Below, one piece after another: positions 1-5,745 of a stretch of DNA of 5,745 bases. The notes below the pieces were generated by a model. The model saw only the letters and a program-made list of their open reading frames with translations. It ran no database searches and was not told the DNA's origin. A program made the translations under genes and the position numbers. Each line of letters begins with the position of its first letter. The first letter of the stretch is position 1. This stretch comes from Planctomicrobium sp. (GTDB lineage: Bacteria > Planctomycetota > Planctomycetia > Planctomycetales > Planctomycetaceae): positions 1 through 5,745 of the forward strand of contig JABJMI010000401.1 of assembly GCA_018659505.1 (NCBI GenBank), in the 5' to 3' direction.

Positions 1-692
1 AACTCTCCGTCGATGAAACCGATCAACCAACAACATTGGCTGAGCATTACATCATCGCAGATCAGTGCATTCAAGGTGGAATGAAACTCGTCAGTCTGGC
101 ACCACGCTTCATTGGCGAATTGGAGAAGGGTGTTGACTACAAAGGCGATGTCTCTGCTTTGGAAGCATCCTTAAATGATCACGCAGCGATCTCTCAGTTG
201 GTTGGACCATACAAACTAAGTTTGCATTCCGGGTCAGACAAGATCTCCATGTATCCCGCTTTGGCACGTGCCACGCAAGGCATGTTTCATGTGAAGACCG
301 CGGGGACGAGTTACCTCGAAGCAATCCGAGTTGTCGCTCGACACGATGAGGAACTCTTCCGTCGCATCGTGAAGTTCGCTCGTGATCGTTACGACGTTGA
401 TAAAGCGACATACCACGTCGCTGCAACAAATGCGACGGTTCCTACAGGAGAAGGGCTGGACGCAACAAAGCTCGAACAGGTTTATCTCGAACGCTGGCAG
501 GATGTCCCCCAAGGATTAGGTTTCACCGAACCTGGACGCCAGATCCTGCATTGCACGTTCGGTTCAGTGCTGACAAGCGAAGAATTCGGACCGGCTGTTT
601 ATTCCGTTCTGGAGAGCCATCCAGAAACTTACAAAGATGTTCTCGCTGACCATTTCAGCCGACATTTAGACGCACTTCGTTCAGGCATGTAG
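1..692 (+). CDS. uxaE: Tagaturonate epimerase-family protein (UxaE-like), C-terminal part; start lies off the left edge
   Basis: The frame is open to the left edge (first full codon at base 3), so the TTG at 36 is not the start; about 229 residues remain, ending at TAG 690-692. The UxaE family converts D-tagaturonate to D-fructuronate in the cytoplasm, letting galacturonate breakdown join the glucuronate route, and is usually a little under 500 residues, so about half is missing. Visible family blocks, in order, are LSLHSGSDKISMYP (bases 219-260), HVKTAGTSYLEAIR (289-330), a YHVAATNATVP block, RQILHCTFGSVL (537-572) and a C-terminal DHFSRHL. I recognise these from memory of the family; no alignment was run. 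No frameshift is seen. The sulfatase gene starts 42 bases downstream on the same strand, so the two may be cotranscribed. A broader sugar-acid epimerase role within the family remains possible. Confidence 0.82.
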   Translation, partial: LSVDETDQPTTLAEHYIIADQCIQGGMKLVSLAPRFIGELEKGVDYKGDVSALEASLNDHAAISQLVGPYKLSLHSGSDKISMYPALARATQGMFHVKTAGTSYLEAIRVVARHDEELFRRIVKFARDRYDVDKATYHVAATNATVPTGEGLDATKLEQVYLERWQDVPQGLGFTEPGRQILHCTFGSVLTSEEFGPAVYSVLESHPETYKDVLADHFSRHLDALRSGM

Positions 693-2594: not shown

Positions 2595-3821
2595 TCATTT
2601 CACAGGAGTGATTTTCAACTCATCAAGGTAGAGAGTACCGGTGGCGCCATTGAGTCCTGCTTGGACAATTGCTTCTTTGGCTCCGCGTGGAATGTTGATG
2701 AGAACACCGGAGCGAGTCCAGTTCTCCTGATCTGCTAGCCAGGGACCAATGACAACGCGATCAATCGGGATGCGCCGTCCATCATAGAAATAGAAGACGA
2801 TGCCAGGATATTCATTTGAGTTTCGACCCGCGCCGATGTTCTCCGATTTCATTGCCCAGCTGACTCTGGCTTGACGAACCTGTGTTCCATCGATTGCCAT
2901 GCCTTGCAGCATATGAGCATTGCGACCTCTCTCAGCATTTTCAAAACGAATACTTGCTGTCCCCGCTGCTGCGTCGTCGCTAATCTCGCCGCGCCGAAGA
3001 TAGTGCCAGCCATCAGCGAGACCATCTTCGTTTTCATCGTCTTCGAAACTCCCGTTGACGATTTCGGGATTGGCAGGATCAGGTTGAATCTTGCGCAACT
3101 CTTCCATTTGTCCAGTCATTGGGACAAAGAGTGTTGGTAGTAATTTTGTCTGAACCAGCTTACCTTCAATCTTTTCAAACAAGTGAAAGACTTGTTGATA
3201 CCGCTCACCCAGAGGGACAATCATTTTGCCCCCTTCTTTGAGTTGCTGAATTAATTTTGGAGGGACGTTTTCAGGCGAGCAGGTGACGATAATCTTGTCG
3301 AACGGAGCAAATTCTGGCCATCCCTGATAGCCGTCTCCGATGCGAGTATGAACATTCTTGTATTTTAATCGTTCCAGCAACTTTTTGGTTCGCTGACCAA
3401 GAGGTTCGACAATCTCAATGGAATAAACATCTTGTACAAGTCCCGAGAGAACCGCTGCCTGATAGCCACTCCCGGTTCCGATTTCCAGAACTTTGTCCGT
3501 CGGTTTCGGATCGAGAACTTCCGTCATGTAGGCAACAATAAACGGTGGTGAGATTGTTTGTTTGAAGCCAATATCCAGGGCGCTGTCAGCGTATGCCATA
3601 CTACGCAGGTTCGGACGCACGAAAAGATGACGAGGAACTTCCGCCATCGAAGCGAGAACTCGCTCATTTGTCACCCCTTCGGCAGCGATGAAATCCGTCA
3701 CCATCGTTTGACGCGCTGCGTAGTACGGGTCGCGTCGCTGTGCAATGACAACACCTTGAGCAAGTGTGCAAAGGAGCGCGAGTACGCACGCCATTCGAGT
3801 TGGTCGATTCAAAAACTGCAT
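2595..3821 (-). CDS. pcm: Secreted protein-L-isoaspartate O-methyltransferase with C-terminal beta-sandwich-like domain
   Basis: The family transfers a methyl group from S-adenosylmethionine to isoaspartyl residues in damaged proteins, starting their repair. Residues 1-27 look like a signal peptide (R6 and R9, hydrophobic M10-A27, cleavage after VIA at 25-27). The methyltransferase domain spans about 33-244. It contains the family block F86-K-Q-T-I-S-P-P93 with substrate-site T89/S91, the SAM-binding loop V111-LEIGTGSGYQAA-A123, acidic E136 after the second strand, the GDGYQGWP block (162-169) and FVPMTG (232-237). A typical bacterial Pcm is about 210 residues, so about 155 residues are extra. 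Residues 253-408 begin with the NGSFEDDENEDGLADGW pattern and end with TLYLDELKI, as in CBM4/9-type or other galactose-binding-like jelly rolls. The upstream leader has only a weak purine stretch, but the signal peptide supports the ATG at 3819-3821. It converges on the sulfatase gene. Methyltransferase membership is firm; export and the C-terminal fold are inferred. Confidence 0.92.
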   Translation of the reverse strand: MQFLNRPTRMACVLALLCTLAQGVVIAQRRDPYYAARQTMVTDFIAAEGVTNERVLASMAEVPRHLFVRPNLRSMAYADSALDIGFKQTISPPFIVAYMTEVLDPKPTDKVLEIGTGSGYQAAVLSGLVQDVYSIEIVEPLGQRTKKLLERLKYKNVHTRIGDGYQGWPEFAPFDKIIVTCSPENVPPKLIQQLKEGGKMIVPLGERYQQVFHLFEKIEGKLVQTKLLPTLFVPMTGQMEELRKIQPDPANPEIVNGSFEDDENEDGLADGWHYLRRGEISDDAAAGTASIRFENAERGRNAHMLQGMAIDGTQVRQARVSWAMKSENIGAGRNSNEYPGIVFYFYDGRRIPIDRVVIGPWLADQENWTRSGVLINIPRGAKEAIVQAGLNGATGTLYLDELKITPVK

Positions 3822-4062: not shown

Positions 4063-5280
4063 ATGGATGTCACAGATTTACAATCAGAATATCGCTGTCC
4101 TGGGGAGACGCAGCCGATTTCAAAATCTTTGCATCTGGCACGCCTCGCAGCTGGATATTCAGCTTGCTTTGAGTGTGTACATCGCTGCGAAACTGGGACT
4201 CTTGCGGTTGATGTTGTTGAGAAGATTAAGACAAAGAACTTTGCAGAGCACTCTTTTCAACTAGAGACTCAATTTGAACAAAAAGACGAAATACGTGGTA
4301 TTTACCTCAATGAATTAACGCGACCAAAGACTGAAAGCCTGATTGAGCACGTCCTTGAGTTAGTCCAACAAGAGCGTTCACAACTCTCGACTCCACCTAG
4401 AGTTTTGGTCGCCCACGATTGGCGTCCCTCGTCACCTGATCTGGTGACAGGGGTTGTTGCAGTCCTCCGCCGATGGGGATGTGAAATCGCTGATCTGGGG
4501 CAGATCAATCGTCCTTGCTTCGACTTCGCAATGTCACAATTTCCCGCAGACTTAGGGATCTTTGTCACGGGGGGAGTCGAAGCCGAGAAGCTCAACGGGC
4601 TAGATATTATCTCTGCCGAAGGAATCGAATGGAGCCACCCCGGTCGATTGAGCAAACTCTTTGAGAATCTCTCCAAACCGACGAGCCGTTCTCGTCGTCA
4701 AGCAGGAGAGTTTCAGTCAATTTCAGTAACAAAGAATTATGAAGCACTGATCAATCAACATTTTCCTGATATTCAGCCGATGCGAGTTGCCTTGGCCTGC
4801 GCTGAACCATTGGCATTGCAGATTCTTGGCTCAATACTGTTGAAGCATGGTTGTGAAGTGAATTTCCACGAGTTGAATTATTCTTCCTCAGATTTCAAAA
4901 AGCAGATGGAGGTCTTTCGTCATGCCGTTCGTGACACGCATATCGACATTGGGGTATTGATTCGTGCTGATGGCCAATCCCTCGCGATATTTGATGAACG
5001 AGGCAAACGGGTTTCTCATACAGCACTTCTCAATCTACTGAAACTTTCGGTTCCAAACGATCATCAGATACCGATTCAGAATTCCCCCGAACAGCTTTTA
5101 ACTGAATCTCGAGAGTCTGAGTGGGAATTTGTCACTGATGAAGAAGAACGTATCTGGTTCGCAGATCTAGAACCACAATGTGATGCGATTCATGTGATCG
5201 GCAAAGTCCTCATGCGATTGTCAGAGTCAGACTCTTCGCTTTCAGTATTGAGCCGTCGAAATACGGTTCATAATCCTTGA
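4063..5280 (+). CDS. Phosphoglucomutase/phosphomannomutase-like protein with Cys/His N-terminus, probable pseudoenzyme
   Basis: Residues 10-47 hold a Cys/His module, CPGET at 12-16 then H24, C35-x-x-C38, H40 and C42, which could bind zinc. Phosphohexomutase features follow. IRGIYLNELTRP (77-88) matches the family's N-terminal GIRGI block, HDWRPSSPDL (118-127) matches the GRDxRxSS block, and DLG (144-146) matches the next strand. The phosphoserine loop, normally T-A/G-S-H-N-P, is here T169-G-G-V-E173, so the catalytic serine is missing, although NGLD (178-181) is kept. The magnesium loop, normally DGDxDR, is R301-A-D-G-Q-S306, though the following IFDERG (309-314) is kept. The chain ends near residue 405 after a domain III-like end, so the phosphate-binding domain IV appears absent; active enzymes are usually about 450 residues or longer. 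Mutase activity is therefore unlikely, and sugar-phosphate sensing or a structural role is possible. CPGET at residue 12 supports this ATG. No signal peptide is visible, so it is probably cytoplasmic. Confidence 0.83.
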   Translation: MDVTDLQSEYRCPGETQPISKSLHLARLAAGYSACFECVHRCETGTLAVDVVEKIKTKNFAEHSFQLETQFEQKDEIRGIYLNELTRPKTESLIEHVLELVQQERSQLSTPPRVLVAHDWRPSSPDLVTGVVAVLRRWGCEIADLGQINRPCFDFAMSQFPADLGIFVTGGVEAEKLNGLDIISAEGIEWSHPGRLSKLFENLSKPTSRSRRQAGEFQSISVTKNYEALINQHFPDIQPMRVALACAEPLALQILGSILLKHGCEVNFHELNYSSSDFKKQMEVFRHAVRDTHIDIGVLIRADGQSLAIFDERGKRVSHTALLNLLKLSVPNDHQIPIQNSPEQLLTESRESEWEFVTDEEERIWFADLEPQCDAIHVIGKVLMRLSESDSSLSVLSRRNTVHNP

Positions 5281-5316: not shown

Positions 5317-5745
5317 TTACGAATTCTCTTCGAAGACTGCTTTCATTTTGCGAAGCCCGGTTTCCATGACGGTTTTCGGATCTTGCTTCCAGTAGTCTTT
5401 GTTAAACAATTCAAGAGAAGCCGCTCCGTTGAAACCGATGGAGTTTAGAATTCCAATGATTTCTTTCCAAGGCGCTACACCATCTCCCGGATAAACACGA
5501 TGAGAGTCATTCATTTCTAAACGAGCAGGTTCTGCTGGATAGTCATTGAAGTGGAAACAGTGAACGGCGTCTCCACTTAAAAGTCCCAAGCCCGCGAACG
5601 CCGAACCTCCTCGAAAAATGTGGTAGACATCGGGCAGAACACAAGCATCAGAATGACCACTCTCGACAGCGACGAAAATCGCTTCGCCGAGTCTCGAAAG
5701 ATTCTTTGATGGTCCCCAGATTTCAACTTGAGGGATGACACCTGT
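5317..5745 (-). CDS. Sugar phosphate isomerase/epimerase-like TIM barrel, C-terminal part; start lies off the right edge
   Basis: The minus-strand frame stays open to the right edge, giving 142 C-terminal residues ending at TAA (5317-5319). The TTG at 5587-5589 is internal, because clear family sequence lies before it. That upstream part reads [18 protein letters not shown], then [15 protein letters not shown], then CFHFNDYP, the later strands of a xylose isomerase-like (AP endonuclease 2 superfamily) barrel. Expected metal ligands are the Glu of QVEIWG, the Asp and His of PDVYHI, the His of CFHFND and the Glu of ASLELFN. The [14 protein letters not shown] block is common in this group. Full members are usually 270-310 residues, so about half is present. 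The reaction is probably isomerisation or epimerisation of a sugar or sugar derivative; the substrate cannot be told. It converges on the phosphohexomutase-like gene with a 36-base gap and no obvious terminator. Confidence 0.88.

What the first reader, a model, noticed from the sequence alone, without database searches (positions are those of the whole stretch)
4063..5280. Phosphohexomutase framework with both catalytic loops destroyed
The protein keeps several family blocks (IRGI, HDWRPSSP, NGLD, IFDERG). Yet the phosphoserine position is glycine (TGGVE at 169-173 instead of TASHNP), the metal loop is RADGQS (301-306) instead of DGDADR, and domain IV appears missing. Losing two separate catalytic elements while keeping a long intact frame suggests selection for a non-catalytic job, such as sensing a sugar phosphate or regulating a true mutase. 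I recall similar CPGET-start proteins in other planctomycetes annotated simply as phosphomannomutase, so the annotation may be misleading across a lineage.
Basis: partly seen in the sequence, partly recalled or inferred. Interest (0 to 1): 0.72.

Follow-up and report, generated by a model that had tools for sequence, protein, structure and literature searches.

The report
Dead sugar-phosphate mutase with metal-site module
This planctomycete protein keeps the fold of a sugar-phosphate mutase but has lost all four of the loops that such enzymes use for catalysis, while keeping a near-invariant cysteine/histidine module, predicted to bind zinc, that intact mutases of anammox bacteria also carry; it is therefore likely a regulator or scaffold rather than the mutase that databases call it.

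Summary

It occurs once in 83 of 84 sampled genomes of the window's family. The same module, with Cys for His, sits on intact mutases of anammox Brocadiales; in three other genomes it is a small gene just upstream of a mutase gene. The His/Cys exchange points to a metal, probably zinc. All 15 family genomes checked also encode an intact mutase.

Best reading: a mutase ancestor became a metal-bearing, non-catalytic binding protein. Partner, ligand and metal are unknown.

The parts
4063..5280 (+). Whole gene: phosphohexomutase-fold protein without domain IV, 405 aa plus stop
4090..4185 (+). N-terminal module, residues 10-41, with C12 (codon 4096-4098), H24 (4132-4134), C35 (4165-4167), C38 (4174-4176); predicted metal site
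   Evidence: C12, P13, H24, R27, C35, C38 invariant in 115 aligned sequences; module profile match G000:C914:4087-4200, E 2.1e-20
4282..4662 (+). Domain I, residues 74-200
   Evidence: Pfam match 74-192; model
4567..4587 (+). Remnant of the phosphoserine loop, residues 169-175 (TGGVEAE)
   Evidence: alignment to 1k2y; column counts
4708..5016 (+). Domain II, residues 216-318
   Evidence: sub-threshold Pfam match 236-314; model; boundaries approximate
4963..4980 (+). Remnant of the metal-binding loop, residues 301-306 (RADGQS)
   Evidence: alignment to 1k2y; column counts
5017..5262 (+). Domain III, residues 319-400, shortened and diverged
   Evidence: model aligned to residue 372 of solved mutases; profile alignment to 1k2y residue 362; boundaries approximate
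5137..5154 (+). Remnant of the sugar-binding loop, residues 359-364; the loop His corresponds to R363
   Evidence: profile alignment; R in 106 of 120

Best explanation
This is a phosphohexomutase-fold protein that has lost all four active-site loops and domain IV, so it is predicted to be catalytically dead, and that likely works as a binding or regulatory protein whose N-terminal Cys3His module would hold a zinc ion. Shown by the calls: domain content of the model; loss of the loops in the listed homologues; purifying selection; one module copy per genome in nearly all sampled members of the window's family; the same module on intact mutases, and as a separate gene beside mutase genes; intact mutases elsewhere in the genomes checked. 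Inferred: a mutase that worked together with a small metal-binding module lost catalysis in the ancestor of this clade, and the module and body were kept because they bind a partner protein and/or a phosphorylated ligand. The working model is GlmM, which inhibits the c-di-AMP cyclase CdaA by docking, also when its domain 4 is removed (PMC8573169). Partner, ligand and metal are not identified.
For: Loops: 0 of 161 listed homologues with SHNP, DGDxDR, GExS[GA]H or RxS[NG]TEP; positive control on 120 listed anammox relatives, Ser 120, metal Asp 120/120/116, sugar-loop Glu 112. Fold of domains I-III kept. Purifying selection, dN/dS 0.06-0.14 in 18 of 19 pairs, one saturated. One clade, support 100/99. 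Module match in 83 of 84 family genomes, one each. His/Cys exchange at one module position: 160 His-form and 112 Cys-form proteins; Cys4 in 114 of 114 rows that reach it. Module as a separate gene just upstream of a mutase gene in 3 genomes. Module is the most conserved region per column. Mutases with intact serine and metal loops in the window's genome and in 15 of 15 further family genomes.
Against: No activity, metal or binding was measured. The metal loop keeps two acidic residues in most relatives and 28 of 120 still have Ser at the serine column, so some other chemistry is not excluded. Gene context names no partner: holA is divergent and adjacent in 71 of 134 His-form loci but not in the window. 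The geometry of the four Cys/His ligands could not be inspected. The tree does not place the inactive clade inside the anammox form (AU p 0.12 for a joint clade: not rejected, not shown).
Confidence: 0.62

Rival explanations
1. It is still an enzyme: the pocket has been rebuilt and catalyses another reaction on a phosphorylated compound, using the [DE][DE]DG loop and conserved arginines.
For: D303 kept in 112 of 120; R78 119, R121 120, R209 118, R212 119 and R363 106 of 120.
Against: All four superfamily loops are changed, the serine column varies (A, S, G, H), and the window's own subgroup has lost the first acidic position of the metal loop (R in 10 of 120), which an active site would not be expected to tolerate.
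Confidence: 0.15
2. It binds a sugar phosphate or nucleotide sugar in the old cleft and signals its level to an intact mutase or another enzyme (a pure metabolite sensor).
For: The domain I-III body is kept, and PGM5 shows that an inactive mutase can still bind glucose-1-phosphate (PMC7761743, abstract and section 4.1).
Against: PGM5 keeps its loops; here the sugar and phosphate loops are gone, domain IV with its phosphate-binding loop is missing, and domain III is the least conserved domain.
Confidence: 0.2
3. It is a c-di-AMP cyclase regulator, the local counterpart of GlmM on CdaA.
For: A body without domain 4 suffices in B. subtilis (PMC8573169); DAC domains are in 59 of 61 family genomes, the window's own included.
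Against: No direct link was found here; interface residues were not compared; DAC domains also occur in 11 of 14 control genomes, so co-occurrence says little.
Confidence: 0.1
4. The module carries an iron-sulfur cluster rather than zinc, making the protein a redox or oxygen sensor.
For: Three Cys plus one His, or four Cys on the anammox relatives.
Against: His/Cys exchange at a fixed ligand position is more usual for zinc (recalled, from no call); nothing here measures a metal.
Confidence: 0.15
5. It is a decaying gene on its way out.
For: Motifs of the parent enzyme are lost.
Against: Purifying selection, near-universal single copy, invariant module.
Confidence: 0.02

Closest known systems
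PGM5 (aciculin), inactive vertebrate phosphoglucomutase (PMC7761743, PMC5570346)
   Different: PGM5 has four domains, keeps TASH and its metal site and binds substrate (passages and section read); the present protein has lost all four loops and domain IV and carries an N-terminal Cys/His module.
GlmM as inhibitor of the c-di-AMP cyclase CdaA (PMC8573169)
   Different: GlmM is an enzyme with a catalytic serine (Ser100 in the passages seen) and no such module; a link to a cyclase is untested here.
CPGE-module phosphomannomutases of anammox Brocadiales (e.g. Candidatus Brocadia, Kuenenia, Jettenia, Scalindua)
   Same: Same N-terminal module and domains I-III.
   Different: Cys in place of His24, intact loops and domain IV; in 11 of 14 loci directly behind an epimerase/dehydratase gene and an FMN-reductase gene.
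P. aeruginosa PMM/PGM (1k2y and related entries)
   Same: Best sequence match among solved structures, E 1e-41 with the family profile over residues 42-362.
   Different: Active four-domain enzyme without the module.

Membership tests
alpha-D-phosphohexomutase superfamily (fold and descent) | Domains I-III of the mutase fold, with sequence similarity to members | tested here: met
alpha-D-phosphohexomutase superfamily (fold and descent) | Domain IV | tested here: not met
   No PGM_PMM_IV match; model aligns only to residue 372 of 455 of 1wqa
Active phosphohexomutase | Phosphoserine loop (TASHNP type) | tested here: not met
   TGGVE in the window; SHNP in 0 of 161 listed homologues
Active phosphohexomutase | Metal-binding loop DGDxDR type | tested here: not met
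   RADGQS in the window; DGDxDR in 0 of 161; usual form [DE][DE]DG
Active phosphohexomutase | Sugar-binding loop GExSGH type | tested here: not met
   0 of 161; His column is R in 106 of 120
Active phosphohexomutase | Phosphate-binding loop of domain IV | tested here: not met
   RxS[NG]TEP in 0 of 161
Active phosphohexomutase | Mutase activity | not testable with these tools
   needs purified protein
GlmM, phosphoglucosamine mutase (NCBIfam TIGR03990, TIGR01455) | Score above the curated cut-off | tested here: not met
   68.9 against 439 bits and 54.9 against 447.55 bits
GlmM-like regulator of a c-di-AMP cyclase | Binding to and inhibition of a DAC protein | not testable with these tools
   a DAC domain is encoded in the window's genome; binding needs experiment
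PGM5-like inactive mutase | Mutase fold without mutase activity | not testable with these tools
   predicted from the lost loops only
Zinc-binding module | Conserved set of Cys/His ligands | tested here: met
   C12, H24, C35, C38 invariant in 115 sequences; His or Cys at the second ligand position
Zinc-binding module | Tetrahedral ligand geometry and bound zinc | not testable with these tools
Zinc-binding module | Match to a described module in Pfam or to a solved structure | tested here: inconclusive
   no Pfam match for three small module ORFs and only E 0.097 for a fourth; best PDB sequence match E 0.96; fold search not accepted

The most novel reading that the evidence does not exclude
An undescribed zinc module is the shared partner of phosphohexomutases across Planctomycetota: a separate gene beside the enzyme in some lineages, fused to an active enzyme in anammox bacteria, and in Planctomycetaceae fused to a body that gave up catalysis altogether and became a core metal-bearing regulator; catalysis was lost at least twice (this clade, and locus L159).
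Probability: 0.4. Interest if true: 0.75.

Novelty: new variant of a known kind. Interest (0 to 1): 0.58.

Why it matters
Inactive phosphohexomutases are known from vertebrates (PGM5). A bacterial one that is single-copy, near-universal in a family and under purifying selection would be a clean case of an enzyme fold kept for a non-catalytic job, with active relatives that carry the same extra module for direct comparison. If the reading holds, the names phosphomannomutase or phosphoglucosamine mutase given to some of these proteins mislead metabolic reconstructions of planctomycetes. It also defines a small Cys/His module, without a Pfam family in the ORFs tested, whose link to sugar-phosphate enzymes can be tested.

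Tried and rejected
Recent decay was rejected on selection, clade and distribution data.

Gene context as a guide to function: holA (DNA polymerase III delta, Pfam) is divergent and adjacent in 71 of 134 His-form loci, a set in which named and unnamed records of one species can both occur; of the 131 with 700 or more upstream bases, 69 have it so, 1 has it farther off and 61 have none, the window among them. No pathway follows.

One fusion event for the inactive and the anammox form is neither shown nor rejected (AU p 0.12; 0.143 with two split-gene mutases added; 16 of 65 rows, long, short or near-duplicate, were left out of that tree). In both trees the inactive clade lies outside the intact PMM-type rows, which a single inheritance of module plus enzyme does not predict simply.

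Literature: the listings showed no paper on this family, and one search found none; the library holds open-licence PMC papers only. PMC10632474 (essential genes of Planctopirus limnophila; passages only) has no hit for mutase, GlmM or holA in its main text; its tables could not be opened.

Other dead ends: the first genome-contig scan with the single sequence found no relative. The module profile has no convincing PDB sequence match. The module folded alone gave pLDDT 80.2, pTM 0.51, too weak to name a fold.

Limits: protein searches list only the best 120 rows (123, 142 and 7998 found). 115 of the 120 rows went into alignment A1 (five fragmentary or redundant rows dropped by me). Patterns undercount intact loops in the anammox set (91 of 112 had all three by pattern; aligned counts). 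Nine of 281 proteins had no module match by pattern: one His-form fragment, and eight of the anammox set, most of them short at the N-terminus.

Full report

The loops. Four loops, one per domain, carry the active site of the superfamily: phosphoserine, metal-binding, sugar-binding and phosphate-binding (PMC6443537 and PMC5570346, passages seen). In the 120 listed homologues the serine column is A 56, S 28, G 19, H 11, other 6; the next column (His in active enzymes) is G in 99; the column of the loop's Lys is D or E in 113; the metal loop is mostly [DE][DE]DG with D303 in 112; the column of the sugar-loop His is R in 106 (mapped by the alignments). Over all 161 homologues of this form listed, fragments included, none has SHNP, DGDxDR, GExS[GA]H or RxS[NG]TEP. 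As a control, the 120 listed anammox relatives have the Ser in 120, the three metal Asp in 120, 120 and 116, the sugar-loop Glu in 112, and the phosphate-loop Arg in 119.

The module. Invariant columns in 115 aligned sequences are C12, P13, H24, R27, C35, C38, D119, R121 and L135; six of the nine lie between residues 12 and 38. Per column the module is the most conserved region: mean information 3.24 bits, against 2.63, 2.21 and 1.91 for domains I, II and III. Of four small ORFs that hold a module, three had no Pfam match and one only E 0.097. The phylum search led to intact mutases with the same module and Cys in place of His24; the protein search names Kuenenia, Brocadia, Jettenia and Scalindua. 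By pattern, 160 of 281 listed proteins have the His form, none of them with a catalytic motif, 112 the Cys form, and 9 no match. By alignment the Cys form has four Cys in 114 of 114 rows that reach this far. Among fetched loci, 112 of 112 His-form loci lack all three patterns and 12 of 12 Cys-form loci have all three. A His/Cys exchange at one place is what a metal ligand would do; zinc is the likely metal (inference).

Split genes and a second loss. In L160, L163 and L166, from three genomes (two of one genus), the module is a small separate ORF directly upstream of a mutase gene on the same strand, behind a TatD-family hydrolase gene. The mutases of L163 and L166 have intact loops; that of L160 is cut by the contig end and shows only the serine loop. 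In L159 a Cys-form module precedes a long protein with Pfam domains I, II and III and, by eye, a domain IV-like tail; none of the four loop patterns is found in it. This looks like a second, separate loss, seen in one genome only.

Distribution and selection. With the module profile, 92 of 297 genomes of the class match, one match each: 83 of 84 in the window's family f1 (the miss is a 92% complete genome), 4 in f2, 3 in f103, 2 in f3. In eight or more f1 genera the full-length profile aligns only up to about profile positions 210-290, so domains II and III have diverged further there. f1 is very probably Planctomycetaceae: the window's genome is in the genus of G194, whose protein equals that of Thalassoglobus neptunius over 376 of 376 residues, and that species is placed in Planctomycetaceae. 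The source is thus probably a Thalassoglobus species. Of 19 close pairs, 18 gave dN/dS values between 0.06 and 0.14 and one was saturated; several of the 18 have dS above 1. The inactive form is one clade with 100/99 support in both trees; it lies outside the intact PMM-type rows, and a joint clade with the anammox form is not rejected (p 0.12).

Other mutases in the same genomes. The window's genome has a mutase with TASHNP, DGDADR and GESSAH on contig C223. In 15 of 15 further f1 genomes, chosen by me from those already searched, a mutase with intact serine and metal loops was found beside the inactive protein. The inactive protein is thus probably not needed for the standard reaction.

How it likely works. 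A mutase body without domain 4 is the part of GlmM that suffices to bind and inhibit the c-di-AMP cyclase CdaA (PMC8573169; abstract, one section and passages seen). PGM5 shows that an inactive mutase can be kept, and it is reported to act in protein contacts, though it retains its loops (PMC7761743, abstract and section 4.1; PMC5570346, passages). I therefore commit to a non-catalytic binding or regulatory protein with a likely zinc-bearing N-terminus. The partner is open: a DAC protein is encoded in 59 of 61 f1 genomes, but also in 11 of 14 control genomes, and the genome's own intact mutase is another candidate. Neither was tested.

Context. In the anammox loci the intact form stands directly behind an epimerase/dehydratase gene and an FMN-reductase gene in 11 of 14 loci, in keeping with sugar-nucleotide synthesis. 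In the inactive form no such setting is kept; holA is divergent and adjacent in 71 of 134 loci, a redundant set, and not in the window. The window's neighbours are a PCMT-type methyltransferase and a TIM-barrel protein.

Novelty. Inactive members of this superfamily are known, so this is a new variant of a known kind. The Cys/His module shared by active, split and inactive forms was not found described in the searches made.

Noticed in passing
L160, L163, L166: A TatD-family hydrolase gene, a small module gene and a mutase gene stand in a row on one strand.
   Followed up: partly
L161, L164, L165, L168, L170, L171, L172: Small ORFs with a module-like CPxx...C..RQ...KC..C motif and no mutase next to them on the stretch fetched; perhaps a wider family of small Cys4 proteins in Planctomycetota.
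   Followed up: partly
L159:2182-4005: A Cys-form module on a long mutase-like protein without any of the four loop patterns: a probable second loss of catalysis.
   Followed up: partly
f1 genomes: Diadenylate cyclase (DAC) domains in 59 of 61 genomes of the window's family, the window's own (contig C669) included.
   Followed up: no
71 of 134 His-form loci: holA (DNA polymerase III delta) divergent and adjacent to the inactive mutase gene in about half of a redundant locus set.
   Followed up: partly
window 3-692, 735-2339, 2595-3821 and 5317-5745: Neighbours: end of a tagaturonate epimerase (UxaE), a sulfatase with an SGSH_C domain, a PCMT-type methyltransferase with extra C-terminal region, and part of a xylose-isomerase-like TIM barrel.
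   Followed up: no
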